Assembly (NCBI RefSeq): GCF_021497885.1
Contig: NZ_CP046523.1
Span: forward strand, 849,501-913,500
Length of the DNA stretch: 64,000 bases
Direction: 5' to 3'
Origin: Streptococcus oralis
GTDB lineage: Bacteria > Bacillota > Bacilli > Lactobacillales > Streptococcaceae
Shown here: positions 1 through 20,904 of the stretch, piece after piece
How the letters are laid out: the number at the start of each line of letters is the position of its first letter
How positions within the stretch are numbered: the stretch's first letter is position 1
Made by a program: the position numbers and the translations under genes
The notes under the pieces: model-generated
What the model saw: only the letters and a program-made list of their open reading frames with translations
Database searches by the model: none
What the model was told of the DNA's origin: nothing

Positions 1-38
1 AAAATTGGCAACACTTACTCCTACCATTCGCCCAGTAT

Positions 39-111
39 AGAGATTGTGAGACAAGAGCAAGGGCGCAAGCCGAAGGCAATGCGCCCGAAGCACGCAGTTC
101 TCTCAATCTCT
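39..111. repeat. Nested inverted repeats upstream of the IME relaxase (structured origin region)
   Basis: An outer 12-base arm at 39-50 pairs with 100-111 (11 of 12 positions). A perfect inner 7-bp stem pairs GGGCGCA (61-67) with TGCGCCC (80-86). The fold lies directly before the oriT-like hairpin. Its place beside a rolling-circle-type initiator suggests a single-strand origin or an accessory relaxase site; the role is inferred. Confidence 0.5.
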
Positions 112-120
112 AAGGAAATA

Positions 121-142
121 GCTGGCGTTTCTAACAGCCAGC
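121..142 (+). other. Predicted oriT / nick hairpin of the IME
   Basis: A perfect 6-bp inverted repeat, GCTGGC (121-126) and GCCAGC (137-142), encloses the 10-nt loop GTTTCTAACA. The loop ends in CTAACA, as do the oriT loops of Tn916 and ICEBs1, which are processed by MOBT relaxases. CTAACA also survives beside a G6 arm at the Tn916 junction (2659-2670). It lies about 105 bases before the relaxase start, as expected for an origin and its cognate relaxase. Confidence 0.6.
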
Positions 143-246
143 AAACAGATACACTTAAGGCAACGCCCTAAGTAACGTGTCGTCAGCAAAACTCAATAGT
201 AACATTGACCTACGCATTTAGCAATTATAGAAAGGAGGCATTACAG

Positions 247-1239
247 ATGAAAAATAACCTTCAAGCACTACGAGAATATCAAAGCCAAGTAGATTTATCA
301 GAACTAGAAAAATCTATTTATATCAGTATTGACCGACTAACAGTAATTCTTGATAGAGACAACTGTTCTCTAAGACGTATATTTTGGGAATTAAGAAATT
401 CTATCGATTCTATTATTCAAGAATTTAGCATTCAAGCAAATCTAAAAGAAGATTATTTTACACTTTATAAAATGGTAAATGAGGATAGTATTAATCTAAT
501 TTTCTTCCAATTATCAACCTATGGTGGTTTTCAAGTCATACGTTTAGACTTCAACCCAAACTCGCTTAAAGAATTTGGAGGTCTTCAAGTATGGCGACAG
601 ATTATGAATTATGCTCGATTAAATGGATTAGATGTTAGACTATCACGCTTAGACCTTGCTTTTGATATCTTTAACAGACCAGAAATAGTCTTTTTACAAC
701 ATATCAAAGGTGGAGTTAGTCATAAAATATTCTATGGTAGAGGAGGAAACATAGAAAGCAAATACTGGGGTGCTAGTGGTAGTAATGTTCAAGTACGTTT
801 ATACGATAAGAACATAGAGGTATTAAGTCATAAGAGAGCCGATAAATTAAATATCGAGAGTAAACCTTTCTGGTGGCGGTTGGAGTTTCAACTTCGAACA
901 AAGGCTATAAACTCAGAAACCATTTCAGAGATTTCCAAACGACTAGAGAATTTTAGTTTTTTTAGTCTTTCAAGTGTTCCAGATGATAGCAAAGCATTTG
1001 CTTATATCTTTCTCCATGCACCAGCTCTTTTACCCGAATTATTCCCCTATCTGAAACCTAACACTATAAGAGTCAAAAAAACTAGGCTTAGAAAACACCT
1101 AAAAGCATTTGATAGTAACTCATTTTCTTTAGAGCTTCAAGATGCACTAAAAAAACAAATACCTCGATTAAACAATGAATTAAAACAATTAATAGGAGAA
1201 TTCATTGAACTTACTAGTAAAGGAGAAGATAATTTATGA
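247..1239 (+). CDS. Rep_trans-family replication initiation / MOBT-type relaxase of the IME
   Basis: Probably nicks the element's own oriT to start rolling-circle replication and mobilisation. The ATG at 247 follows AAAGGAGG (231-238) at 8 nt and is preferred over the upstream TTG at 205, giving 330 residues. Visible Rep_trans signatures are SRLDLAFD in the first half, VRLYDKNIE (candidate catalytic Tyr) and WWRLEFQLR. These parallel KRLDLAIND, YFCIYEKDY and RFEIRLKN in the Tn916 relaxase encoded at 2801. Unlike that protein it has no obvious N-terminal helix-turn-helix. It overlaps the next gene by 4 nt. A purely replicative Rep cannot be excluded. Confidence 0.75.
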   Translation: MKNNLQALREYQSQVDLSELEKSIYISIDRLTVILDRDNCSLRRIFWELRNSIDSIIQEFSIQANLKEDYFTLYKMVNEDSINLIFFQLSTYGGFQVIRLDFNPNSLKEFGGLQVWRQIMNYARLNGLDVRLSRLDLAFDIFNRPEIVFLQHIKGGVSHKIFYGRGGNIESKYWGASGSNVQVRLYDKNIEVLSHKRADKLNIESKPFWWRLEFQLRTKAINSETISEISKRLENFSFFSLSSVPDDSKAFAYIFLHAPALLPELFPYLKPNTIRVKKTRLRKHLKAFDSNSFSLELQDALKKQIPRLNNELKQLIGEFIELTSKGEDNL

Positions 1240-1439
1240 ACGATAAACTAACTATGACAGTACAAGATATTATGGACTTAGGGTTCTCAAAATGGACTGC
1301 TTATAATATTCTACGACAAGCAAAACATATTATGATTGAGCGTGGTTTCGATTTCTATAACAATAAAGGGCTCGGAACTGTTCCCGTATCAGTTGTATCA
1401 GAAATTCTTGGATTGGAGGAACTAAATGTCAAAAACTAG
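1236..1439 (+). CDS. DUF3173-family small DNA-binding protein (likely excisionase-like)
   Basis: A 67-residue protein with a predicted helix-turn-helix (VQDIMDLGFSKWTAYNILRQAK). DUF3173 proteins are typically encoded just before tyrosine integrases of streptococcal mobile elements and are thought to act as directionality factors; that role is inferred here. The ATG overlaps the relaxase stop by 4 nt, and the gene's own 3' end overlaps the integrase start by 14 nt, so the three genes are translationally linked. No other domain is visible. Confidence 0.75.
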   Translation: MNDKLTMTVQDIMDLGFSKWTAYNILRQAKHIMIERGFDFYNNKGLGTVPVSVVSEILGLEELNVKN

Positions 1440-2565
1440 ATATACTGGTGTTACCAAAGACGATAAAACTGGGAAATATACTTATTATTTTAAAGCTGGA
1501 GTTGACCTAGCTACTGGTAAACCATATCAAGAACGCAGACGTGGTTTTGAAACCGCAAAAGAAGCCTTCGAAGCACGTACAAGAGCATTAAATAAAGTGC
1601 ATCAAAAAGGTGGAATTAAACACACTCAATGGACGTTTAAACAATTTATGGACGAAGTATTTATACCAAATTATTATGCTACTACAAGTCCAGACCTCGA
1701 ACGAAGACGTCAAGTTATATTTGATGAATTTATCCAATATTTTGGTAAGAAAAAACCTAGAGAAATTACAACTTATGATGTAATAAATTATAGGAATAGT
1801 TTATTAGAAAAATATTCAAATTCATATGCAAGGAACAAAATGACATTGCTTAATCAAGTTTTAAAAACCGCAAAAAAATATGGATTAATTTTCCATGAAA
1901 TACCTACAAGTAATATCAGTCCTATTCCAATAACAAAAAAACATATAGATTTTTGGACAAAAGATGAATTTCAAAAAGTAATACAATCCCTTGATAAAGA
2001 GAGTTATTTTGAGCATTTTATTTATACGCTCTTTTGGCTTTATTATTTTACGGGAATGCGTGTAAATGAGGCGACTGCTCTTTATTGGGAGGATGTGGAT
2101 TTTGAAAAGAAAACTCTAGCTATCAATCACAACTTACAGTATATAAATCGTGAAAACTGGGAACGCCGTAACAAGCTAAAAACTGAAAGCTCTCGGCGTA
2201 CTATTGGACTAGATGATAATACTCTAAAAGTGCTTAAGGAGTGGAAAGAAAGACAAGAAAAAGTCGATAAAATACCATTCATTCTGTCGCCCGACGGAGT
2301 TCCATATCGTAAACGTAGTATTAGAGACCAAATTTTAAAATACTCTAAGCGTGCTGGTGTTAAATACATTCAACCAAAAGGTTTGAGGCACTCCCACGCA
2401 TCATTGCTTATTAATGAGTATAATGTAAATGCCCTATATATTCAAAGACGTTTAGGTCATTCTGATGTCAAAACAACACTTAGCATTTATAGTCATTTAT
2501 ACCCGAACGCAGATACCGAATTAACCGATAAACTCAATCTCATATCAAATGATTTTATTGATTAA
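1426..2565 (+). CDS. Tyrosine recombinase / integrase of the IME
   Basis: A 379-residue site-specific recombinase that would integrate and excise the IME. It has an N-terminal AP2-like arm-binding region (about 1-60), a SAM-like core-binding domain (about 65-165) and a C-terminal catalytic domain. Catalytic motifs are TGMRVNEA (Arg near 211), GLRHSHAS (near 320), RLGHSDV (near 343) and the tyrosine in LSIYSHLY (near 354). The ATG follows GGAGGA (1415-1420). The stop is about 90 bases from the Tn916 oriT remnant, so the gene abuts the attachment site, as usual for integrases. The inferred target is the oriT of Tn916-type elements. Confidence 0.9.
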   Translation: MSKTRYTGVTKDDKTGKYTYYFKAGVDLATGKPYQERRRGFETAKEAFEARTRALNKVHQKGGIKHTQWTFKQFMDEVFIPNYYATTSPDLERRRQVIFDEFIQYFGKKKPREITTYDVINYRNSLLEKYSNSYARNKMTLLNQVLKTAKKYGLIFHEIPTSNISPIPITKKHIDFWTKDEFQKVIQSLDKESYFEHFIYTLFWLYYFTGMRVNEATALYWEDVDFEKKTLAINHNLQYINRENWERRNKLKTESSRRTIGLDDNTLKVLKEWKERQEKVDKIPFILSPDGVPYRKRSIRDQILKYSKRAGVKYIQPKGLRHSHASLLINEYNVNALYIQRRLGHSDVKTTLSIYSHLYPNADTELTDKLNLISNDFID

Positions 2566-2573
2566 ATCTACTT

Positions 2574-2596
2574 AGCTACCAAAAGAGCTACCAAAA
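2574..2596 (+). repeat. Tandem 11-bp direct repeats next to the IME integrase
   Basis: AGCTACCAAAA occurs at 2574-2584 and again at 2586-2596, between the integrase stop and the attachment site. Such repeats are commonly arm-type binding sites for the integrase N-terminal domain; this function is inferred. Confidence 0.5.
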
Positions 2597-2612
2597 AATA
2601 AATAAGTATCTA

Positions 2613-2640
2613 AAAAGCCTTATTTTAAAGGGCTTTTTTT
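2613..2640 (+). terminator. Rho-independent terminator after the IME integrase
   Basis: AAAAGCC (2613-2619) pairs with GGCTTTT (2631-2637), followed by a T run to 2640. It would end the relaxase-DUF3173-integrase transcript inside the IME. Confidence 0.6.
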
Positions 2641-2648
2641 AAGATTTT

Positions 2649-2671
2649 CCCACTATATCTAACAGGGGGGT
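2649..2671 (+). other. Disrupted oriT of the Tn916-family element at the IME right junction
   Basis: CTAACAGGGGGGT (2659-2671) is the nick loop and right arm of the Tn916/ICEBs1-type oriT hairpin. An intact site should have six C residues as the left arm; here only CCC (2649-2651) precedes it and the hairpin cannot form. This places the IME crossover within oriT, just before the loop. The intact Tn916 sequence is recalled from memory. Confidence 0.7.
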
Positions 2672-2741
2672 ACAAATCGACAGGAAACAGTCAAAAAAAC
2701 ATTAGAAAATCCTTTGGTTACAAGGGATTTACAAAATTTCA

Positions 2742-2777
2742 GCGTATGTCAAATGGGCTTTAAAAGTTGACATACGC
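2742..2777 (+). other. Inverted repeat before orf20, candidate single-strand origin (sso) of Tn916
   Basis: GCGTATGTCAA (2742-2752) and TTGACATACGC (2767-2777) form a perfect 11-bp stem with a 14-nt loop immediately before orf20. A functional sso has been mapped in Tn916 between oriT and orf20; this hairpin is the obvious structured element there. Confidence 0.5.
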
Positions 2778-2800
2778 CTTTTTGATTGGAGGGATTTTTA

Positions 2801-4204
2801 CTGAATGAACAAACTTGGTTACAGCATTTAAAAGAAAAACGCTTGGCTTATGGACTATCTCAAAACCGTTTAGCTGTTGCGACTGGTATTACAAGGCAGT
2901 ATCTAAGCGATATTGAAACAGGAAAAGTCAAGCCATCAGAGGATTTACAGCAGTCCCTTTGGGAAGCTCTGGAACGCTTCAATCCCGACGCTCCCCTTGA
3001 AATGCTGTTTGATTATGTAAGGATTCGCTTTCCCACAACGGACGTACAGCATGTGGTCGAAAACATCTTACAACTGAAACTGTCCTATTTTCTTCATGAG
3101 GACTATGGTTTCTATTCTTATTCAGAGCATTATGCTTTAGGCGATATATTCGTTCTCTGCTCCCACGAACTGGACAAAGGAGTTCTGGTGGAATTGAAAG
3201 GTCGTGGGTGTCGGCAATTTGAAAGCTATCTTCTGGCTCAACAAAGAAGCTGGTATGAGTTCTTTATGGACGCTTTGGTGGCTGGCGGTGTGATGAAACG
3301 CCTTGACCTTGCCATTAACGATAAGACAGGGATTTTGAATATCCCTGTACTCACTGAAAAGTGCCAACAGGAAGAATGTATCTCCGTCTTCCGCAGTTTT
3401 AAAAGCTATCGCAGTGGCGAACTGGTACGCAAAGATGAAAAGGAATGTATGGGAAATACCCTCTATATCGGTTCATTACAGAGTGAAGTTTATTTCTGTA
3501 TCTATGAAAAGGACTATGAACAGTACAAGAAAAATGATATTCCCATTGAAGACGCAGAAGTAAAAAACCGTTTTGAGATTCGATTGAAAAATGAGCGTGC
3601 CTATTATGCAGTCCGTGATTTACTCGTCTATGACAATCCAGAGCATACCGCCTTTAAAATTATCAATCGGTATATCCGTTTTGTAGATAAAGACGATTCC
3701 AAACCTCGTTCTGATTGGAAACTGAATGAAGAATGGGCTTGGTTTATTGGGAACAATCGTGAACGATTAAAACTAACCACAAAACCAGAGCCTTACTCCT
3801 TCCAAAGGACGCTGAACTGGCTATCTCATCAAGTTGCCCCGACCTTAAAGGTTGCGATTAAACTTGATGAAATCAACCAGACGCAGGTTGTAAAAGACAT
3901 TCTCGACCATGCGAAACTGACAGACCGACACAAGCAGATTTTGAAGCAACAGTCAGTAAAAGAACAGGACGTGATAACAACAAAAAAAGGATATCTGTCA
4001 ACCATACCAGTTGACAGATATCCAAAAAAAGATATAATGGGAGATAAGACGGTTCGTGTTCGTGCTGACTTGCACCATATCATAAAAATCGAAACAGCAA
4101 AGAATGGCGGAAACGTAAAAGAAGTTATGGAAATAAGACTTAGAAGCAAACTTAAGAGTGTGTTGATAGTGCATTATCTTAAAATTTTGTATAATAGGAA
4201 TTGA
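2801..4204 (+). CDS. orf20: Orf20-type MOBT relaxase with an altered C-terminus fused to an omega-repressor remnant
   Basis: Nicks the oriT of Tn916 to start rolling-circle transfer. An N-terminal XRE helix-turn-helix (about residues 5-60, LSQNRLAVATGITRQYLSDIE) precedes the Rep_trans relaxase domain (KRLDLAIND, YFCIYEKDY, RFEIRLKN). The likely start is the non-standard CTG at 2801, 7 nt after GGAGGG (2788-2793); an in-frame TTG at 2786 lies too close to that site. Native sequence ends near 3988. The frame then runs through an IS-end palindrome (3989-4023) and the omega remnant, stopping at 4202-4204. The conserved catalytic part is complete, so activity may persist. Its usual upstream partner orf21 is separated from it by the IME. 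Confidence 0.85.
   Translation: MNEQTWLQHLKEKRLAYGLSQNRLAVATGITRQYLSDIETGKVKPSEDLQQSLWEALERFNPDAPLEMLFDYVRIRFPTTDVQHVVENILQLKLSYFLHEDYGFYSYSEHYALGDIFVLCSHELDKGVLVELKGRGCRQFESYLLAQQRSWYEFFMDALVAGGVMKRLDLAINDKTGILNIPVLTEKCQQEECISVFRSFKSYRSGELVRKDEKECMGNTLYIGSLQSEVYFCIYEKDYEQYKKNDIPIEDAEVKNRFEIRLKNERAYYAVRDLLVYDNPEHTAFKIINRYIRFVDKDDSKPRSDWKLNEEWAWFIGNNRERLKLTTKPEPYSFQRTLNWLSHQVAPTLKVAIKLDEINQTQVVKDILDHAKLTDRHKQILKQQSVKEQDVITTKKGYLSTIPVDRYPKKDIMGDKTVRVRADLHHIIKIETAKNGGNVKEVMEIRLRSKLKSVLIVHYLKILYNRN
3989..4023. repeat. 35-bp palindrome made of ISL3-type element ends
   Basis: GGATATCTGTCAAC (3989-4002) and GTTGACAGATATCC (4010-4023) form a perfect 14-bp inverted repeat around CATACCA. The right part (4002-4023) is the exact reverse complement of the left end of the IS at 5391-5412. 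It therefore looks like a residual, inverted IS end joining orf20 to the erm(B) segment. Confidence 0.65.
4025..4132 (+). pseudogene. Remnant of the omega (RHH) copy-control repressor of Inc18/pSM19035-type plasmids
   Basis: The frame reads KKDIMGDKTVRVRADLHHII and on through NGGNVKEVME. I recognise this as the central ribbon-helix-helix region of the pSM19035 omega repressor. Native omega is about 71 residues; here both ends are missing and the frame is joined to orf20 upstream and unrelated codons downstream. An internal ATG lies at 4037. It marks the erm(B) segment as derived from a streptococcal or enterococcal plasmid. Confidence 0.75.
4167..4195 (+). promoter_or_regulatory. erm(B) promoter
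   Basis: A perfect TATAAT (4190-4195) lies about 58 bases before the leader peptide. The -35 is weak: TTGATA at 4163-4168 is 21 nt away, and TAGTGC at 4167 has 17-nt spacing. Only the -10 is well supported. Confidence 0.5.
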
Positions 4205-4252
4205 AGTTAAATTAGATGCTAAAAATTTGTAATTAAGAAGGAGGGATTCGTC

Positions 4253-4336
4253 ATGTTGGTATTCCAAATGCGTAATGTAGATAAAACATCTACTGTTTTG
4301 AAACAGACTAAAAACAGTGATTACGCAGATAAATAA
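4253..4336 (+). CDS. ermBL: Erm(B) leader peptide (ErmBL)
   Basis: A 27-residue ORF starting MLVFQMRNVDKTSTVL, preceded by AAGGAGGG (4238-4245). This is the known erm(B) leader. Macrolide-bound ribosomes stall while translating it, which changes pairing in the following leader RNA and exposes the erm(B) ribosome-binding site. The sequence looks full length, so expression is probably inducible. Confidence 0.9.
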   Translation: MLVFQMRNVDKTSTVLKQTKNSDYADK

Positions 4337-4460
4337 ATACGTTAGATTAATTCCTACCAGTGACTAATCTTATGACTTTTTAAACAGATAACTAAAATTA
4401 CAAACAAATCGTTTAACTTCTGTATTTGTTTATAGATGTAATCACTTCAGGAGAGATTAC

Positions 4461-5198
4461 ATGAACAAAAATATAAAATATTCTCAAAACTTTTTAACGA
4501 GTGAAAAAGTACTCAACCAAATAATAAAACAATTGAATTTAAAAGAAACCGATACCGTTTACGAAATTGGAACAGGTAAAGGGCATTTAACGACGAAACT
4601 GGCTAAAATAAGTAAACAGGTAACGTCTATTGAATTAGACAGTCATCTATTCAACTTATCGTCAGAAAAATTAAAACTGAATACTCGTGTCACTTTAATT
4701 CACCAAGATATTCTACAGTTTCAATTCCCTAACAAACAGAGGTATAAAATTGTTGGGAATATTCCTTACCATTTAAGCACACAAATTATTAAAAAAGTGG
4801 TTTTTGAAAGCCGTGCGTCTGACATCTATCTGATTGTTGAAGAAGGATTCTACAAGCGTACCTTGGATATTCACCGAACACTAGGGTTGCTCTTGCACAC
4901 TCAAGTCTCGATTCAGCAATTGCTTAAGCTGCCAGCGGAATGCTTTCATCCTAAACCAAAAGTAAACAGTGTCTTAATAAAACTTACCCGCCATACCACA
5001 GATGTTCCAGATAAATATTGGAAGCTATATACGTACTTTGTTTCAAAATGGGTCAATCGAGAATATCGTCAACTGTTTACTAAAAATCAGTTTCATCAAG
5101 CAATGAAACACGCCAAAGTAAACAATTTAAGTACCATTACTTATGAGCAAGTATTGTCTATTTTTAATAGTTATCTATTATTTAACGGGAGGAAATAA
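4461..5198 (+). CDS. ermB: 23S rRNA (adenine-2058-N6) dimethyltransferase Erm(B)
   Basis: Dimethylates A2058 of 23S rRNA with S-adenosylmethionine, giving macrolide-lincosamide-streptogramin B resistance. The 245 residues are the usual length. The SAM-binding motif [10 protein letters not shown] is at about 35-44 and the catalytic motif GNIPYHLS near 99-106. The ATG follows AGGAGAG (4450-4456). A 124-nt leader after ErmBL can form alternative hairpins for translational attenuation. Its base composition and the omega remnant point to plasmid origin, unlike the flanking Tn916 backbone. I see no disruption. Confidence 0.97.
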
Positions 5199-5202
5199 TT
5201 CT

Positions 5203-5334
5203 ATGAGTCGCTTTTTTAAATTTGGAAAGTTACACGTTACTAAAGGGAATGGAGATAAATTATTAGATATACTACTGACAGCTTCCAAGAAGCTAAAGAG
5301 GTCCCTAGCGCCTACGGGGAATTTGTATCGATAA
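5203..5334 (+). CDS. Small basic ORF downstream of erm(B) (plasmid-derived)
   Basis: A 43-residue ORF starting MSRFFKFGKLHVTKGNGDKL, 4 nt after the erm(B) stop, with GGGAGG at 5188-5193 as ribosome-binding site. The same short ORF habitually accompanies erm(B) in plasmid and transposon copies (from memory). Its end overlaps the hairpin at 5300-5366, so it may be a truncated reading frame rather than a functional protein. No domain is recognised. Confidence 0.5.
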   Translation: MSRFFKFGKLHVTKGNGDKLLDILLTASKKLKRSLAPTGNLYR

Positions 5335-5366
5335 GGGGTACAAATTCCCACTAAGCGCTCGGGACC
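5300..5366. repeat. Large hairpin downstream of erm(B)
   Basis: Outer arms GGTCCCTAGCGC (5300-5311) and GCGCTCGGGACC (5355-5366) and inner arms GGGAATTTGTA (5317-5327) and TACAAATTCCC (5339-5349) nest around an 11-nt loop. It could slow transcription from erm(B), or may be a relic of a plasmid recombination site. Confidence 0.6.
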
Positions 5367-5417
5367 CCTTGTAGGAAAATGTCCTAAGTGGGATATCTGT
5401 CAACTGGTATGGTTGAC

Positions 5418-5453
5418 TAAAAATACTTCCTACGAAAATGTAGGGGGTATTTT
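5418..5453. terminator. Bidirectional hairpin terminator inside the IS left end
   Basis: AAAATACTTCCTAC (5420-5433) pairs with GTAGGGGGTATTTT (5440-5453), a 14-bp stem with two G-U pairs and a GAAAAT loop, flanked by A and T runs. It can stop transcripts from erm(B) on the plus strand and from the transposase on the minus strand. Confidence 0.6.
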
Positions 5454-5454
5454 T

Positions 5455-6702
5455 TTACGAAAAAATACAATCGATTCTTAAAAAGAAAAATTTTTGATTG
5501 GCAAAACCATAACAAGTTCGTTTTAGGGTTTTGATTTTGCGATTGATGCCTTCTAAAGGACCATTAGAGTATTCAAATTTAGCGCTATTTAAGACATATT
5601 TTCTGTTTTGACGAAGGGTTTGAATAGCAGTATCCATTTCTGTATTGGTTTTTTGGTAGTCTAAGATGGTTGACTCTAGTAATTCACTATTGCGCTCGTT
5701 TAGGGCTTTCGTGATATCTTGGTAAGTTTGGTATACTTCAGCGAACTTGGAAAATTTACTAGTAATGAGATCAACAGCATTTTGGCGAGTCATATATTGT
5801 TTAACGCCGCGAAGAAAAACTACTTCTTCAGGGTGAAGATCTTCAGCTTTTTTATGGAATAGCTTCCAATGTGACTTCATAATTTTATATTCTTGGCTCT
5901 GTTTATCAAGTTGCTTTAGGATAGAGATACGACAATTGTCCAAAGCGCGACCAGCTAATTGTACAAGGTGGAAGCGATCAATAATGATATTGGCATTAGG
6001 GAAAAGGCGATAGATAAAACTTTGATATTGAGCATTTAAATCAATTACAACTGATTGAACGCATTCGCGTTCGGCTTTTGAATAACGACTTTCAAAATAA
6101 TCAACAATGGTAGGTGATAGACGATCCTGTAACTTTGTGACAATTTGGTGGGTTTCAGCGTCACAACAGATAAAGGACATCACAGACTTAATTGAACGAA
6201 ACTCGTCAAAACATAGATGCTTAGGCAACTTAGCCACACGATAGTGTGGTTCCATGCGCTCTAAGATTGTTCGACGAACACTGCTAGGAGAGCAGTGACA
6301 CATTTCAGCAATAAGCTGACCAGATAAGCCTTTACGAGCTAAAAGCATGATTTGATTTTTGAGATCACTGGATAAGGTTTGATTTTCTTTGGTTAAATTA
6401 GTAATAGCACCAAAAGTAGTATGGCATGATTTACATTTATAGCGTTGTTTACGAAGCTCTAGTTCATATCTTCTCCCATTTAAACTTGCCAGTCGTACAT
6501 GAGTTTTGCGAAAGCCATCCTTATTAACTGTGGGAAAGCCACAGTTACGACAACGATTAATCGGATAAGAAAGAGTAGCTGTTATTAGCGTTATATACTC
6601 TTTAACAGAATCGTTGTTGTGTTCAGCTTCTTCAACAGAAATAATTTTAATATTTTTATCTTTAATTCCAAGAATATTTAGGATAGAATCATTATGGGAC
6701 AT
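5455..6702 (-). CDS. ISL3-family transposase
   Basis: A 415-residue DDE transposase of normal length for the family. The N-terminal zinc ribbon carries CRNCGF and CKSCHTTF (cysteines near 36-39 and 91-94). A helix-turn-helix follows (LSGQLIAEMCHCSPSSVRR). The catalytic acidic residues are apparent in VVIDLNAQY, IIIDRFHLV and LEGINRKIK. The ATG at 6702 sits about 127 bases inside the IS right end, preceded on the minus strand by GAAGG. The frame is intact, so the element may be active. Confidence 0.9.
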   Translation of the reverse strand: MSHNDSILNILGIKDKNIKIISVEEAEHNNDSVKEYITLITATLSYPINRCRNCGFPTVNKDGFRKTHVRLASLNGRRYELELRKQRYKCKSCHTTFGAITNLTKENQTLSSDLKNQIMLLARKGLSGQLIAEMCHCSPSSVRRTILERMEPHYRVAKLPKHLCFDEFRSIKSVMSFICCDAETHQIVTKLQDRLSPTIVDYFESRYSKAERECVQSVVIDLNAQYQSFIYRLFPNANIIIDRFHLVQLAGRALDNCRISILKQLDKQSQEYKIMKSHWKLFHKKAEDLHPEEVVFLRGVKQYMTRQNAVDLITSKFSKFAEVYQTYQDITKALNERNSELLESTILDYQKTNTEMDTAIQTLRQNRKYVLNSAKFEYSNGPLEGINRKIKTLKRTCYGFANQKFFFLRIDCIFS

Positions 6703-6749
6703 TTGTTTAACCTTCTTTCATGATTTTTGTGGTGAATTGATTGTATAAC

Positions 6750-6777
6750 GAGGGGACAGCAAATGTCCTCTTTTTTG
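6750..6777 (+). terminator. Terminator-like hairpin near the IS right end
   Basis: GAGGGGACA (6750-6758) and TGTCCTC (6764-6770) form a stem with one bulge, followed by six T residues. It would stop plus-strand readthrough before orf19, or insulate the IS. Confidence 0.45.
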
Positions 6778-6881
6778 TATAAAAAAATCTGGCATGGAAT
6801 CTCTATCCATACCAGAAAGTGTATACCCCAAAAAAATAACTCAAATACAAATTCATTGAATATAGAGAGGAGAACATTTTT

Positions 6882-7103
6882 ATGAATTTTGGACAAAACC
6901 TTTATAACTGGTTTCTATCAAACGCTCAATCACTGGTGCTTTTAGCAATCGTTGTGATTGGCTTGTATCTTGGCTTCAAGCGTGAGTTTAGCAAACTGAT
7001 TGGCTTTTTAATTATTGCGATTATTGCGGTTGGCTTAGTCTTCAACGCTGCTGGAGTAAAAGACATTTTACTAGAGCTATTCAATCGCATTATTGGTGCT
7101 TAA
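6882..7103 (+). CDS. orf19: Orf19, TcpD-like small membrane protein of the mating pore
   Basis: A 73-residue protein with two predicted membrane segments (about 16-31 and 37-55) and short charged ends. In Tn916 and related elements this position encodes a small TcpD-like component of the type IV secretion channel. The ATG follows GAGAGGAGAA (6867-6876). It heads the conjugation gene run through orf13 on the same strand. The IS and erm(B) lie upstream, so its native promoter context is partly replaced. Confidence 0.75.
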   Translation: MNFGQNLYNWFLSNAQSLVLLAIVVIGLYLGFKREFSKLIGFLIIAIIAVGLVFNAAGVKDILLELFNRIIGA

Positions 7104-7219
7104 ATAAAACCGTTCTTTTGTGGAATATAAGTGGTTTTCTTATGTTCCGCAAAGGAATAGTACACCAAACGAAGTGCGGTAGGGATTTTTGAATCTCTAC
7201 AAAGAAAGGACGTGAATAT

Positions 7220-7717
7220 ATGGACGATATGCAAGTCTATATTGCGAATTTAGGCAAATACAATGAGGGCGAATTGGTCGGTGCGTGGTTTACCTTTCCC
7301 ATTGACTTTGAGGAAGTCAAAGAGAAAATCGGCTTGAATGATGAATATGAGGAATACGCCATTCATGACTACGAGTTACCCTTTACGGTTGACGAATACA
7401 CTTCCATTGGCGAACTCAATCGCCTATGGGAAATGGTATCGGAGTTGCCAGAAGAACTACAATCGGAGCTATCTGCTCTGCTCACTCATTTTTCAAGTAT
7501 TGAAGAATTAAGCGAACATCAAGAAGATATTATCATTCATTCCGATTGTGATGATATGTCTGACGTGGCACGCTACTACATTGAAGAAACGGGTGCTTTA
7601 GGCGAAGTGCCAGCCAGTCTTCAAAACTATATTGATTATGAATCCTATGGTCGGGATTTAGACCTTTCGGGAACGTTTATCTCAACCAATCACGGGATTT
7701 TTGAAATCGTCTATTAA
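7220..7717 (+). CDS. ardA: ArdA antirestriction protein (Orf18)
   Basis: A 165-residue, strongly acidic DNA mimic that inhibits type I restriction enzymes, protecting the incoming single-to-double-strand transposon in a new host. The run of Asp and Glu, the YIANLGKYNEGELVGAWF start and the C-terminal FEIVY are typical of Tn916 ArdA, whose structure is known. Length is as expected. The ATG follows GAAAGGA (7202-7208). It lies within the conjugation operon, between orf19 and orf17. Confidence 0.93.
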   Translation: MDDMQVYIANLGKYNEGELVGAWFTFPIDFEEVKEKIGLNDEYEEYAIHDYELPFTVDEYTSIGELNRLWEMVSELPEELQSELSALLTHFSSIEELSEHQEDIIIHSDCDDMSDVARYYIEETGALGEVPASLQNYIDYESYGRDLDLSGTFISTNHGIFEIVY

Positions 7718-7803
7718 ATCTGTCGGTACATTCTTACTGGCAGATTTTCTTGTTTACGGGGTAGTCAAAAGACTATCCCCATTTTTATGAAAGGATTGAT
7801 TAC

Positions 7804-8196
7804 ATGAAGAAAATACGAAGCTATACCAGTATCTGGTCTGTGGAAAAGGTACTGTATTCTATCAATGATTTTAGACTTCCGTTTCCCATAACCTTTACGC
7901 AAATGACATGGTTTGTCGTGTCACTCTTTGCAGTGATGATACTTGGCAACTTGCCCCCTCTTTCCATGATAGAGGGAGCATTTCTCAAATACTTTGGGAT
8001 TCCTGTGGCTTTCACATGGTTTATGTCTACAAAAACTTTTGATGGTAAAAAGCCTTATGGATTTTTGAAGTCTGTCATTGCTTATGCACTGCGACCAAAG
8101 CTGACCTATGCAGGAAAAAAAGTAACGCTTGGCAGAAACCAGCCACAAGAAGCCATTACAGCAGTTAGGAGTGAATTTTATGGCATATCCAATTAA
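7804..8196 (+). CDS. orf17: Orf17, TcpE-like conjugation membrane protein
   Basis: A 130-residue protein of the TcpE family with two closely spaced hydrophobic segments (about 31-70) and a basic C-terminus. It is an inner part of the Tn916 mating apparatus, associated with the VirB4-like ATPase encoded next. The start ATG at 7804 follows GAAAGGATT (7789-7797). Its 3' end overlaps the start of orf16 by 17 nt, indicating coupled translation. No defect is seen. Confidence 0.85.
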   Translation: MKKIRSYTSIWSVEKVLYSINDFRLPFPITFTQMTWFVVSLFAVMILGNLPPLSMIEGAFLKYFGIPVAFTWFMSTKTFDGKKPYGFLKSVIAYALRPKLTYAGKKVTLGRNQPQEAITAVRSEFYGISN

Positions 8197-10627
8197 ATAC
8201 ATTGAAAACAATCTCGTCTGGAATAAAGACGGGGAATGTTATGCTTACTATGAGCTTGTTCCTTACAATTACTCATTTCTAAGTCCAGAACAGAAAATAC
8301 AAGTGCATGATTCTTTCAGACAGCTTATCGCACAAAATCGTGATGGCAAAATTCATGCTTTACAAATCAGTACAGAATCCAGCATACGTTCTGCACAAGA
8401 GCGTTCCAAAAATGAAGTCACTGGCAAGCTCAAAGCGGTTGCCTATGACAAAATCGACCAACAGACAGACGCTTTAATATCCATGATTGGCGAAAATCAA
8501 GTGAACTACCGTTTCTTTATCGGCTTTAAGTTGCTTCTCAACGATCAGGAGTTTTCTATGAAAAGTCTTACCGTTGAAGCAAAAAATGCTTTGTCTGATT
8601 TTGTCTATGATGTGAACCATAAGCTGATGGGCGATTTTGTTAGTATGAGTAATGATGAAATCCTGCGTTTTCAGAAGATGGAAAAGCTCTTAGAAAATAA
8701 AATCTCTCGTCGTTTCAAAATCCGCAGGTTAGATAAGGACGACTTCGGCTATCTGATTGAACACCTTTACGGACAGACAGGCACTGCCTATGAAGAGTAT
8801 GAGTACCATCTATCAAAGAAAAAGCTGGATAATGAAACGCTGATTAAATACTATGACTTGATTAAGCCTACTCGCTGTTTGGTGGAAGAAAAACAGCGAT
8901 ATTTGAAAATCCAGCAGGAAGATGAAACCGTCTATGTAGCTTACTTTACCATTAACAGCATTGTCGGAGAACTGGACTTCCCGTCCTCTGAAATCTTCTA
9001 CTACCAGCAACAGCAATTTACATTCCCGATTGATACGTCAATGAATGTGGAAATTGTAGCGAATCGTAAAGCCCTATCTACTGTCCGCAATAAAAAGAAA
9101 GAACTGAAAGACTTGGATAACCACGCTTGGCAAAGTGATAATGAAACCAGCTCCAATGTGGCGGAAGCTCTGGAAAGTGTGAATGAGCTGGAAACCAATT
9201 TAGACCAAAGCAAGGAATCTATGTACAAGCTGTCTTATGTGGTAAGGGTATCAGCAAATGATCTTGACGAACTCAAACGTCGTTGTAATGAAGTGAAAGA
9301 TTTTTATGACGATTTAAGCGTAAAACTGGTACGACCATTTGGGGATATGCTCGGCTTACATGAAGAATTTTTACCTGCCAGCAAGCGTTATATGAATGAT
9401 TATATTCAATACGTGACCTCTGATTTCCTCGCTGGTTTAGGTTTTGGTGCTACTCAAATGCTGGGGGAAAATGAGGGGATTTATGTTGGCTACAGCTTAG
9501 ATACTGGACGCAATGTCTATCTGAAACCTGCTCTTGCCAGTCAAGGGGTTAAGGGTTCAGTAACCAATGCGTTAGCGTCGGCTTTTGTTGGTTCGCTGGG
9601 TGGTGGTAAATCCTTTGCGAATAACCTTATCGTCTATTATGCGGTGCTTTATGGGGCACAAGCAGTGATTGTAGACCCAAAAGCAGAACGTGGCAGATGG
9701 AAAGAAACCTTGCCAGAGATTTCCCATGAAATCAATATCGTCACTCTGACTTCTGATGAGAAAAACAAAGGCTTACTTGACCCTTATGTGATTATGAAAA
9801 ATCCCAAAGATTCTGAATCACTGGCTATTGATATTCTGACATTCCTTACGGGGATTTCCTCTCGTGATGGGGAACGCTTCCCAATCCTTAGAAAAGCCAT
9901 TCGTGCAGTAACCAATAGTGAAGTACGAGGGTTGATGAAAGTGATTGAGGAATTACGGGTTGAGAATACGCCACTAAGTACCAGTATAGCCGACCATATC
10001 GAAAGTTTTACAGACTATGACTTTGCACATTTATTATTCAGTAATGGTTATGTGGAGCAGTCTATCAGCTTAGAAAAACAACTGAACATTATACAGGTTG
10101 CGGACTTGGTACTTCCCGACAAGGAAACTTCCTTTGAGGAATATACCACTATGGAGCTTTTATCCGTTGCTATGCTGATTGTCATTAGTACCTTTGCTTT
10201 AGACTTTATCCATACAGACCGAAGCATTTTCAAGATTGTAGATTTAGACGAAGCATGGAGCTTTTTACAGGTAGCACAAGGAAAAACACTATCTATGAAG
10301 CTGGTTCGGGCTGGTCGTGCTATGAACGCTGGGGTATATTTCGTGACCCAAAATACAGACGACCTCTTAGATGAAAAACTGAAAAATAACCTCGGCTTAA
10401 AATTTGCATTTCGTTCCACTGACCTTAACGAGATTAAAAAGACCTTAGCCTTTTTTGGTGTAGACCCAGAGGACGAAAACAATCAGAAGCGATTGCGTGA
10501 TTTGGAAAACGGGCAATGCCTTATCAGTGATTTATATGGTCGTGTCGGTGTGATACAGTTCCACCCTGTATTTGAAGAACTGCTCCATGCCTTTGATACC
10601 AGACCACCTGTGCGAAAAGAGGTGTAA
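8180..10627 (+). CDS. orf16: Orf16, VirB4-like conjugation ATPase (TcpF)
   Basis: An 815-residue ATPase that energises the mating channel at the membrane. The ATG at 8180 after TTAGGAG is preferred over the upstream in-frame TTG at 8129. Walker A (GSLGGGKSFANN) lies near residues 470-481 and the Walker B-type IVDLDEAW near 682-690. RAGRAMNAGVYFVTQN downstream is typical of the VirB4/TraC group. It overlaps orf17 and is followed 2 nt later by orf15. Intact. Confidence 0.93.
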   Translation: MAYPIKYIENNLVWNKDGECYAYYELVPYNYSFLSPEQKIQVHDSFRQLIAQNRDGKIHALQISTESSIRSAQERSKNEVTGKLKAVAYDKIDQQTDALISMIGENQVNYRFFIGFKLLLNDQEFSMKSLTVEAKNALSDFVYDVNHKLMGDFVSMSNDEILRFQKMEKLLENKISRRFKIRRLDKDDFGYLIEHLYGQTGTAYEEYEYHLSKKKLDNETLIKYYDLIKPTRCLVEEKQRYLKIQQEDETVYVAYFTINSIVGELDFPSSEIFYYQQQQFTFPIDTSMNVEIVANRKALSTVRNKKKELKDLDNHAWQSDNETSSNVAEALESVNELETNLDQSKESMYKLSYVVRVSANDLDELKRRCNEVKDFYDDLSVKLVRPFGDMLGLHEEFLPASKRYMNDYIQYVTSDFLAGLGFGATQMLGENEGIYVGYSLDTGRNVYLKPALASQGVKGSVTNALASAFVGSLGGGKSFANNLIVYYAVLYGAQAVIVDPKAERGRWKETLPEISHEINIVTLTSDEKNKGLLDPYVIMKNPKDSESLAIDILTFLTGISSRDGERFPILRKAIRAVTNSEVRGLMKVIEELRVENTPLSTSIADHIESFTDYDFAHLLFSNGYVEQSISLEKQLNIIQVADLVLPDKETSFEEYTTMELLSVAMLIVISTFALDFIHTDRSIFKIVDLDEAWSFLQVAQGKTLSMKLVRAGRAMNAGVYFVTQNTDDLLDEKLKNNLGLKFAFRSTDLNEIKKTLAFFGVDPEDENNQKRLRDLENGQCLISDLYGRVGVIQFHPVFEELLHAFDTRPPVRKEV

Positions 10628-14978: not shown

Positions 14979-14993
14979 ATGGAGGAAAATCAC

Positions 14994-16913
14994 ATGAAAA
15001 TTATTAATATTGGAGTTTTAGCTCATGTTGATGCAGGAAAAACTACCTTAACAGAAAGCTTATTATATAACAGTGGAGCGATTACAGAATTAGGAAGCGT
15101 GGACAAAGGTACAACGAGGACGGATAATACGCTTTTAGAACGTCAGAGAGGAATTACAATTCAGACAGGAATAACCTCTTTTCAGTGGGAAAATACGAAG
15201 GTGAACATCATAGACACGCCAGGACATATGGATTTCTTAGCAGAAGTATATCGTTCATTATCAGTTTTAGATGGGGCAATTCTACTGATTTCTGCAAAAG
15301 ATGGCGTACAAGCACAAACTCGTATATTATTTCATGCACTTAGGAAAATGGGGATTCCCACAATCTTTTTTATCAATAAGATTGACCAAAATGGAATTGA
15401 TTTATCAACGGTTTATCAGGATATTAAAGAGAAACTTTCTGCCGAAATTGTAATCAAACAGAAGGTAGAACTGTATCCTAATATGTGTGTGACGAACTTT
15501 ACCGAATCTGAACAATGGGATACGGTAATAGAGGGAAACGATGACCTTTTAGAGAAATATATGTCCGGTAAATCATTAGAAGCATTGGAACTCGAACAAG
15601 AGGAAAGCATAAGATTTCAGAATTGTTCTCTGTTCCCTCTTTATCATGGAAGTGCAAAAAGTAATATAGGGATTGATAACCTTATAGAAGTTATTACTAA
15701 TAAATTTTATTCATCAACACATCGAGGTCCGTCTGAACTTTGCGGAAATGTTTTCAAAATTGAATATACAAAAAAAAGACAACGTCTTGCATATATACGC
15801 CTTTATAGTGGAGTACTACATTTACGAGATTCGGTTAGAGTATCAGAAAAAGAAAAAATAAAAGTTACAGAAATGTATACTTCAATAAATGGTGAATTAT
15901 GTAAGATTGATAGAGCTTATTCTGGAGAAATTGTTATTTTGCAAAATGAGTTTTTGAAGTTAAATAGTGTTCTTGGAGATACAAAACTATTGCCACAGAG
16001 AAAAAAGATTGAAAATCCGCACCCTCTACTACAAACAACTGTTGAACCGAGTAAACCTGAACAGAGAGAAATGTTGCTTGATGCCCTTTTGGAAATCTCA
16101 GATAGTGATCCGCTTCTACGATATTACGTGGATTCTACGACACATGAAATTATACTTTCTTTCTTAGGGAAAGTACAAATGGAAGTGATTAGTGCACTGT
16201 TGCAAGAAAAGTATCATGTGGAGATAGAACTAAAAGAGCCTACAGTCATTTATATGGAGAGACCGTTAAAAAATGCAGAATATACCATTCACATCGAAGT
16301 GCCGCCAAATCCTTTCTGGGCTTCCATTGGTTTATCTGTATCACCGCTTCCGTTGGGAAGTGGAATGCAGTATGAGAGCTCGGTTTCTCTTGGATACTTA
16401 AATCAATCGTTTCAAAATGCAGTTATGGAGGGGATACGCTATGGCTGTGAACAAGGATTGTATGGTTGGAATGTGACGGACTGTAAAATCTGTTTTAAGT
16501 ATGGCTTATACTATAGCCCTGTTAGTACCCCAGCAGATTTTCGGATGCTTGCTCCTATTGTATTGGAACAAGTCTTAAAAAAAGCTGGAACAGAATTGTT
16601 AGAGCCATATCTTAGTTTTAAAATTTATGCGCCACAGGAATATCTTTCACGAGCATACAACGATGCTCCTAAATATTGTGCGAACATCGTAGACACTCAA
16701 TTGAAAAATAATGAGGTCATTCTTAGTGGAGAAATCCCTGCTCGGTGTATTCAAGAATATCGTAGTGATTTAACTTTCTTTACAAATGGACGTAGTGTTT
16801 GTTTAACAGAGTTAAAAGGGTACCATGTTACTACCGGTGAACCTGTTTGCCAGCCCCGTCGTCCAAATAGTCGGATAGATAAAGTACGATATATGTTCAA
16901 TAAAATAACTTAG
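14994..16913 (+). CDS. tetM: Tetracycline ribosomal protection protein Tet(M)
   Basis: A 639-residue EF-G-like GTPase that removes tetracycline from the 30S A site. GTPase motifs are AHVDAGKTT (about 10-18), DTPGHMDF (about 74-81) and NKID (about 128-131). The C-terminal EF-G-like domains are complete. The ATG at 14994 follows GGAGG (14981-14985) and is preferred over the in-frame ATG at 14979, which overlaps the orf12 stop. Expression is controlled by the leader and attenuator just upstream. No truncation or mosaic break is evident by eye. Confidence 0.98.
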
Positions 16914-19511: not shown

Positions 19512-20729
19512 ATGTCAGAAAAAAGACGTGACAATAAAGGTCGAATCTTAAAGACTGGAGAGAGCCAACGAAAAGACGGAAGATACTTATACAAATATAT
19601 AGATTCATTTGGAGAACCGCAATTTGTTTACTCGTGGAAACTTGTGGCTACAGACCGAGTACCAGCAGGAAAGCGTGATTGTATCTCACTTAGAGAGAAA
19701 ATCGCAGAGTTACAGAAAGACATTCATGATGGTATTGATGTTGTAGGAAAGAAAATGACACTCTGCCAGCTTTACGCAAAACAGAACGCTCAAAGACCAA
19801 AGGTTAGAAAAAACACTGAAACTGGACGCAAATATCTTATGGATATTTTGAAGAAAGACAAGTTAGGTGTAAGAAGTATTGACAGTATTAAGCCATCAGA
19901 CGCTAAAGAATGGGCTATTAGAATGAGTGAAAATGGTTATGCTTATCAAACCATCAATAACTACAAACGTTCTTTAAAGGCTTCATTCTATATTGCTATA
20001 CAAGATGATTGTGTTCGGAAGAATCCATTTGACTTTCAACTGAAAGCAGTTCTTGATGATGATACTGTCCCTAAGACCGTACTAACAGAAGAACAGGAAG
20101 AAAAACTGTTAGCCTTTGCAAAAGCTGATAAAACCTACAGCAAAAATTATGATGAAATTCTGATACTCTTAAAAACAGGTCTTCGTATTTCAGAGTTTGG
20201 TGGTTTGACACTTCCAGATTTAGATTTTGAGAATCGTCTTGTCAATATAGACCATCAGCTATTGAGAGATACTGAAATTGGGTACTACATTGAAACACCA
20301 AAGACCAAAAGTGGCGAACGTCAAGTTCCTATGGTTGAAGAAGCCTATCAAGCATTTAAGCGAGTGTTAGCGAATCGAAAGAATGATAAGCGTGTTGAGA
20401 TTGATGGATATAGTGATTTCCTCTTTCTTAATAGAAAGAACTATCCAAAAGTGGCAAGTGATTACAACGGCATGATGAAAGGTCTTGTTAAGAAATACAA
20501 TAAGTATAACGAGGATAAATTGCCACACATCACTCCACATAGTTTGCGACATACATTCTGTACCAACTATGCAAATGCAGGAATGAATCCAAAGGCATTA
20601 CAGTACATTATGGGACATGCTAATATAGCCATGACGCTGAACTATTACGCACATGCAACATTCGATTCTGCAATGGCAGAAATGAAACGCTTGAATAAAG
20701 AGAAGCAACAGGAGCGTCTTGTTGCTTAG
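19512..20729 (+). CDS. int: Tn916-family integrase
   Basis: A 405-residue tyrosine recombinase that excises and integrates the conjugative transposon, usually at AT-rich sites. It has an N-terminal arm-binding domain (about 1-74), a core-binding domain (about 80-180) and a catalytic domain with TGLRISEF (Arg near 225), HSLRHTF (near 343), GHANIAM (near 368) and the nucleophile in LNYYAHAT (Tyr 379). The ATG follows AAAGGAG (19496-19502). It is the last gene before the right end of the element, about 175 bases away. Intact. Confidence 0.97.
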   Translation: MSEKRRDNKGRILKTGESQRKDGRYLYKYIDSFGEPQFVYSWKLVATDRVPAGKRDCISLREKIAELQKDIHDGIDVVGKKMTLCQLYAKQNAQRPKVRKNTETGRKYLMDILKKDKLGVRSIDSIKPSDAKEWAIRMSENGYAYQTINNYKRSLKASFYIAIQDDCVRKNPFDFQLKAVLDDDTVPKTVLTEEQEEKLLAFAKADKTYSKNYDEILILLKTGLRISEFGGLTLPDLDFENRLVNIDHQLLRDTEIGYYIETPKTKSGERQVPMVEEAYQAFKRVLANRKNDKRVEIDGYSDFLFLNRKNYPKVASDYNGMMKGLVKKYNKYNEDKLPHITPHSLRHTFCTNYANAGMNPKALQYIMGHANIAMTLNYYAHATFDSAMAEMKRLNKEKQQERLVA

Positions 20730-20880: not shown

Positions 20881-20904
20881 AATTAGAAATTTATACTTTG
20901 TTTA
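20881..20904 (+). repeat. Right terminus of the Tn916-family element
   Basis: AATTAGAAATTTATACTTTG followed by TTTA matches my memory of the Tn916 right end, whose imperfect inverted copy forms the left end. The next bases are chromosomal and AT-rich, as in preferred Tn916 targets. The exact last base is uncertain by a few nucleotides, and the coupling sequence cannot be defined without the left junction. Confidence 0.6.

What the first reader, a model, noticed from the sequence alone, without database searches (positions are those of the whole stretch)
1..2671. An IME sits inside the oriT of a Tn916-type element
The integrase of the left-hand element ends about 90 bases before CTAACAGGGGGGT, the nick loop and right arm of the Tn916/ICEBs1-type oriT. 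The left C6 arm is missing, so the crossover lies within oriT. The host element's relaxase gene orf20 is thereby cut off from orf21-orf24 and its own origin is broken. One element parasitises the transfer origin of another that also carries erm(B) and tet(M). IMEs with this habit are known in streptococci, but this nested arrangement deserves close definition.
Basis: partly seen in the sequence, partly recalled or inferred. Interest (0 to 1): 0.8.

Follow-up and report, generated by a model that had tools for sequence, protein, structure and literature searches.

The report
Hitchhiker element inside resistance transposon's origin
A small mobile element has inserted itself into the start signal for DNA transfer of a larger antibiotic-resistance element in a Streptococcus, as a described family of such hitchhikers does, and it appears to carry a transfer start signal of its own built around the same short DNA word.

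Summary
Extending the contig leftward, the missing half of the Tn916-type oriT hairpin (C6 arm) lies 4.8 kb upstream, 40 bases after orf21, with orf22 and orf23 before it. Between the halves sits a 4.83-kb IME: HTH regulator, HEAT/alkylation-type and EXLDI-family cargo, Rep_trans-like relaxase, DUF3173 protein, tyrosine integrase. Alignment to an intact Tn916-type element (pCF10) gives a 7-base imperfect core, TWTCTAA, containing the nick word CT'AA. This is a new member of a described family, IME_oriT (Libante 2020: 64 elements, 53 in oriT); insertion at the nic site is also published. Published matings with a sibling found that the IME leaves and transfers in trans with its own relaxase without lowering ICE transfer, so "parasitises" is too strong. 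Not found in the texts I read: a conserved hairpin 84 bases before the relaxase ORF start (window 121-142) with the same loop word, present (some with a shortened or altered stem) in 35 of 35 distinct family and sister loci examined. It is my candidate for the IME's own nick site. The host ICE is Tn6002-like; its MobT frame continues into an Omega-repressor domain. Interest is modest.

The parts
1..2662 (+). Right 2.66 kb of the IME; the whole element is G000:C1:847327-852155 (4,829 bp with one core copy; the second core copy ends at 852162), so it begins 2,174 bases left of the window
38..112 (.). Inverted repeat (14-nt arms, 47 apart, 93% complementary) with a nested 7-bp repeat, just before the nick hairpin; part of the presumed IME origin
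   Evidence: DNA fold of 36-145, z = -7.15
121..142 (+). Candidate IME nick hairpin GCTGGC-GTTTCTAACA-GCCAGC; CT'AA at 131-134
205..1239 (+). IME relaxase, Rep_trans-like (TTG start is mechanical; ATG at 247 after an AGGAGG-like stretch is likelier, read by eye)
   Evidence: PF02486, E 2.4e-4, below curated cut-off; motifs shared with Orf20
1236..1439 (+). DUF3173 protein; stands where the family's figure legend places the RDF/xis gene (role inferred)
1426..2565 (+). Tyrosine integrase of the IME
2575..2595 (+). Paired GCTACCAAA repeats, matched by a pair near the left end (L003:11927-11946); presumed integrase arm sites
2612..2638 (+). Terminator-like hairpin between integrase and attR, on the orf20 side (weak)
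   Evidence: z -1.71; 10 of 200 shuffles fold as well; not listed by the scan
2656..2662 (+). attR core TATCTAA, containing CT'AA; left counterpart TTTCTAA at L003:11827-11833
2663..2671 (+). Right part of host oriT: rest of loop, G6 arm (2665-2670) and T
2742..2777 (+). Inverted repeat 71 bases past the G6 arm, near the place of the MobT bind site IR2 described for ICESt3
   Evidence: PMC9371924 passages
2786..4204 (+). Host relaxase mobT/orf20, its frame running on into an Omega-repressor domain (residues 386-457)
3989..6828 (.). Stretch absent from pCF10 (2.84 kb): erm(B) element inserted in orf20, with an ISL3-family transposase; Tn6002-like
14979..16913 (+). tet(M) of the host ICE
19512..20729 (+). 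Host Tn916-type integrase; collinearity with pCF10 ends at 20904

Best explanation
The window holds an IME_oriT-family integrative and mobilizable element that its own tyrosine integrase inserted, in the family's usual orientation, into the nick loop of the oriT of a Tn6002-like (Tn916 family) ICE. Shown: the two halves of the hairpin, the 7-base core, the IME gene set, and like junctions in relatives. Inferred from published work on a sibling: the IME excises, is nicked by its own Rep_trans relaxase at its own origin, and uses the ICE's coupling protein and mating pore to reach a recipient, where it inserts into another MobT-type oriT; the ICE moves once the IME has left. Proposed here: the IME's own nick site is the hairpin at window 121-142, whose loop carries the same CT'AA word that lies in the crossover core.
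For: Left half of oriT with orf21-23; collinearity and 7-base overlap with pCF10; 10 family integrase matches (94-100% identity; two of them cut at a contig end) in 8 of 284 Streptococcus genomes, own included (the other matches in 72 genomes are 34-40% identical); 8 of these 10 elements have at least one end in a MobT-type oriT, all 8 in the same orientation, 2 of 10 lie elsewhere; arm repeats at both ends; catalytic motifs RLDLA and YxKxxE shared with Orf20; hairpin loop word in 43 of 43 rows, 35 distinct loci, 90% identity between clades against 50% around it; Libante 2020, main text of all six parts read, supplements not seen.
Against: No excision or transfer data for this element. The relaxase matches PF02486 only below the curated cut-off (21.2 against 29.6 bits) and matches no NCBIfam model. 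The hairpin stem is conserved in sequence rather than covarying, and 6 of 43 rows have a 5-bp or altered stem, so conservation could reflect another role. Two of 10 relatives sit in sites without an oriT.
Confidence: 0.9

Rival explanations
1. The host ICE is a dead relic: the IME is stuck, and split oriT plus a run-on MobT have ended its transfer.
For: oriT halves 4.8 kb apart; MobT frame altered at its end; no other exact TCTAACAGGGGG in the genome.
Against: IME relaxase, DUF3173 and integrase frames are open; MobT covers 383 of 383 positions of the MobT model; sibling IMEs excise (PMC7563843).
Confidence: 0.2
2. attR still works as a weak origin for the host MobT, so the IME can travel in cis as part of the ICE.
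For: attR keeps CT'AA, the G6 arm and a downstream bind-site-like repeat; a weaker fold remains (-4.1 against -8.8 kcal/mol for an intact relative).
Against: No cis-mobilisation detected for IME_SsalL25_oriT (PMC7563843); [quoted passage not shown]
Confidence: 0.07
3. The integrase recognises chiefly the C-run and G-run arms, and the nick word is incidental.
For: One secondary site (L008) has CCCC and GGG nearby but a changed word; another (L006) keeps TCTAA with short arms.
Against: TCTAA is kept at every oriT insertion seen here although the loop around it differs between Tn916 and ICESt3 types; Libante 2020 also infers a short conserved nic-containing target.
Confidence: 0.2
4. Assembly artefact joining an IME to a Tn916 copy.
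For: None found.
Against: Like junctions stand in other genomes (L010 both sides; L009 left; L112 both); single-contig genome.
Confidence: 0.01

Closest known systems
IME_oriT family (Libante 2020, PMC7563843; earlier reports by Puymege 2015 and Douarre 2015 known to me here only through its citations)
   Same: Rep_trans-type relaxase, RDF and tyrosine integrase genes, regulator, mixed cargo, insertion in the stem-loop upstream of a MobT gene; an alkylation-repair cargo is reported in the S. anginosus NCTC11064 member
   Different: Host here is a Tn6002-like ICE with erm(B) in orf20; cargo is an EXLDI-family plus a HEAT/alkylation-type protein; the text read does not describe the hairpin proposed here as the IME's own nick site
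Tn6002 / Tn916 (host ICE)
   Same: 98.7-99.9% identical collinear blocks with a Tn916-type element; 2.84-kb erm(B) insertion in orf20
   Different: oriT split by the IME; orf20 frame continues into an Omega-repressor domain
MobT / Rep_trans origins (ICEBs1, ICESt3, Rep_trans plasmid dso)
   Same: CT'AA in the loop of a GC-rich hairpin (PMC9371924 passages)
   Different: IME hairpin has GCTGGC/GCCAGC arms; no HTH domain was found in its relaxase, unlike host MobT

Membership tests
IME_oriT | Closely related relaxase and integrase | tested here: met
   Relaxase 89-98% (full-length loci) and integrase 94-99% identical to the other family elements, most of them in MobT-type oriTs; the published reference proteins were not compared directly
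IME_oriT | Insertion in the oriT stem-loop upstream of a MobT gene | tested here: met
IME_oriT | Flanking direct repeats | tested here: met
   7-base imperfect repeat TTTCTAA / TATCTAA
IME_oriT | PF02486 (Rep_trans) relaxase | tested here: inconclusive
   E 2.4e-4 but below the curated cut-off; motifs RLDLA and YxKxxE present
IME_oriT | No mating-pore genes of its own | tested here: met
   six main ORFs scanned, none of that kind; short ORFs not scanned
IME_oriT | Excision and mobilisation in trans with its own relaxase | not testable with these tools
   shown for a sibling only (PMC7563843)
Tn916 / Tn6002 (host) | Tn916 backbone with tet(M) and erm(B) element in orf20 | tested here: met
   definition from a passage of PMC4321634
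MobT relaxase (host orf20) | NF041493 over cut-off | tested here: met
   737 bits against 600, 383 of 383 positions
Intact MobT oriT | Both arms of the nick hairpin together | tested here: not met
   arms 4.8 kb apart; attL fold -1.3 and attR -4.1 against -8.8 kcal/mol for an intact relative

The most novel reading that the evidence does not exclude
Integration and transfer of these IMEs are written in one word: the integrase uses the inverted repeat and CT'AA loop of MobT-type nick hairpins as its crossover site, and each IME's own origin (the conserved hairpin before its relaxase gene) carries the same word, so every IME_oriT brings a latent attachment site with it and origins can collect nested elements.
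Probability: 0.3. Interest if true: 0.55.

Novelty: new member of a known kind. Interest (0 to 1): 0.3.

Why it matters
It adds a fully delimited case in which an IME occupies the origin of an erm(B)/tet(M) ICE, which bears on how annotation judges whether such an ICE can move. The candidate nick hairpin of the IME, if right, supplies the origin that the 2020 study of this family does not locate in its text, and makes the relation between integration core and nick site testable with purified proteins.

Tried and rejected
Plasmid records hold no near relative of the IME at megablast sensitivity. A tandem of two complete IMEs in one oriT was suspected in G242 from two left ends 4.86 kb apart; tblastn found no relaxase or integrase relative between them, and the ORFs there look like ABC-transporter and two-component genes, so I read it as an extra left end with cargo. 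I first took both the W position and the base after TCTAA as segregating inside the crossover; ICESt3-type oriTs have T at the latter place natively, so only the W position is kept. The count of 92 of 284 genomes with the pattern is an upper bound for intact oriTs, since a recurrent hit (L082 type) was not shown to be an oriT. The terminator-like hairpin is weak and the pattern scan did not list it. None of the 20 left ends is flanked by a GCTGGC arm, so I have no case of an IME inside another IME's own hairpin; this counts against the novel reading. A single-strand, integron-like mode of integration was considered and has no evidence.

Full report
Setting. The window is G000:C1:849501-913500 of a single-contig, 1.94-Mb genome. 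I fetched G000:C1:835501-853500 as L003, so that L003 position = window position + 14000.

The observation. Left of the window stand two DUF961 genes (orf23, orf22) and the FtsK gene orf21, L003:10394-11779. Forty bases after orf21 comes the C6 arm of the nick hairpin (L003:11820-11825), then G and TTTCTAATTCCGAG. On the other side, window 2645-2671 reads TTTTCCCACTA-TATCTAA-CAGGGGGGT. Against the Tn916-type element of pCF10 the left flank aligns from L003:9303 to 11833 at 99.9% and the right flank from window 2656 to 3988 at 98.7%; on pCF10 these matches overlap by 7 bases. The IME is therefore 4,829 bp with a 7-base imperfect repeat, TTTCTAA at the left and TATCTAA at the right.

The core and its position. 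The nick site of this ICE superfamily is CT'AA in the loop of a GC-rich hairpin (PMC9371924, passages), so the nick lies inside the 7-base core. That these IMEs insert in the nic site is published (PMC5704250 passages; PMC7563843). Of the Tn916-type loops (GTWTCTAACA) printed, whose list is cut, 41 have A at the second core position and one has T; relatives' right ends suggest T for the IME. In Tn916-type hosts the base at attL/attR is T/A here, A/not seen in L009, T/T in L010 and A/T in G242. It is thus resolved either way, as expected of a position inside the strand-exchange region. This is inference from four elements.

Relatives. The integrase has 10 matches of 94-100% identity, own included and two cut at a contig end, in 8 of 284 Streptococcus genomes; 72 of 284 have any match at E <= 1e-60, the rest being 34-40% identical. 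By coordinates I matched these to the named loci (S. oralis, S. sanguinis, S. parasanguinis, S. australis, S. timonensis and an unnamed species). Eight of the 10 have at least one end in a MobT-type oriT: four of Tn916 type (own, G006, G242, one of G124) and four of ICESt3 type (G143, G271 twice, the other of G124); the type is read from the flanking bases, and for the two of G124 only the left end is on the contig. All eight have the same orientation. Two (G187, G144) sit elsewhere.

The IME's own origin. Window 121-142 is GCTGGC-GTTTCTAACA-GCCAGC. It is the only place in the window, on either strand, with a perfect 6-bp stem around NNNTCTAAYA; 200 mononucleotide shuffles, one strand, gave a mean of 0.01. 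One search examined 43 loci, of which 8 repeat an element under a second id, leaving 35 distinct: 12 of the family (two with a cut relaxase) and 23 of a sister clade whose relaxases are 55-59% identical. Loci had been made for only 30 of the matches; the others, among them the more distant ones, were not examined. All 43 rows carry TCTAACA, 83-85 bases before the relaxase start used as reference; 37 of 43 have the 6-bp stem, 3 have 5 bp and 3 have one altered arm base. In an alignment of 9 family and 21 sister sequences (duplicates and the two cut ones dropped) cross-clade identity is 0.90 in the hairpin and 0.50 outside, and the best 22-base windows overlap it. The stem does not covary, so the case rests on conservation, position and the known nick word. 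The preceding inverted repeat and hairpin fold strongly as DNA (36-145, z -7.15). I did not find this hairpin described in PMC7563843 (main text), in passages of PMC5357655, PMC5704250, PMC7563491, PMC9371924, PMC12614216 and PMC11389934, nor through the searches; supplements and the 2015 papers were not seen.

What the insertion does to the host. orf20 is parted from orf21, and the oriT arms from each other. DNA folds of 42-base pieces give -8.8 kcal/mol for an intact relative, -1.3 for attL and -4.1 for attR. attR keeps CT'AA, the G6 arm and, 71 bases on, an inverted repeat near the place of the MobT bind site described for ICESt3. A weak terminator-like hairpin lies between integrase and attR. 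The genome has no other exact TCTAACAGGGGG. Whether MobT can act here was not tested.

Known biology. Libante 2020 describes 64 such elements, 53 in oriTs of Tn916, ICESt3 and ICE6013 family ICEs, and one inside an unrelated IME. For IME_SsalL25_oriT they saw excision, transfer that needs its own relaxase, no cis-mobilisation, and unchanged ICE transfer. This is why I grade 'parasitises' as unsupported and file the element as a new member of that family. Interest is modest: the arrangement is known; the added value is the exact core, the host and the candidate origin. None of 20 left ends examined lies in a GCTGGC-type hairpin, which counts against the bolder reading that the IMEs' own origins serve as attachment sites.

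Host relaxase. orf20 covers the whole MobT model but its frame continues past the erm(B)-element junction into an Omega-repressor domain, giving 472 aa, against 401 in pCF10 and 420 in pR31-snf2-M. A Tn916-like element with a 2.8-kb erm(B) fragment in orf20 is named Tn6002 (PMC4321634, passage).

Noticed in passing
window 2786-4204: MobT frame runs on into an Omega-repressor domain at the erm(B)-element junction, a 472-aa fusion not seen in the two records compared.
   Followed up: partly
L112 (G242:C3:30001-48000, reversed) 3993-8853: A second copy of the IME left end 4.86 kb outward, with ABC-transporter-like and two-component-like genes between: growth of the IME at its left end.
   Followed up: partly
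L113, L114, L115, L123 (G088, G099, G186, G167): IME left ends of about 55-126 bases at what looks like one shared site with a C-run, with no close relaxase or integrase relative in the stretch fetched; 20 left ends in 17 of 284 genomes against 10 family integrases.
   Followed up: partly
L121 and L122 (G187): A stretch of 1,131 bases with IME left end and flank is 100% identical at two chromosomal places, one beside a sister-clade relaxase, the other beside a family IME.
   Followed up: partly
G000:C1:1253971-1255063: A second IME-type relaxase (57% identical) in the same genome with the same kind of nick hairpin.
   Followed up: partly
L013 and L014 (Streptococcus sp. HMSC074B11, S. infantis DD18): Elements in which only the first 59 residues of the relaxase match, with a left flank that is not an oriT.
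   Followed up: no
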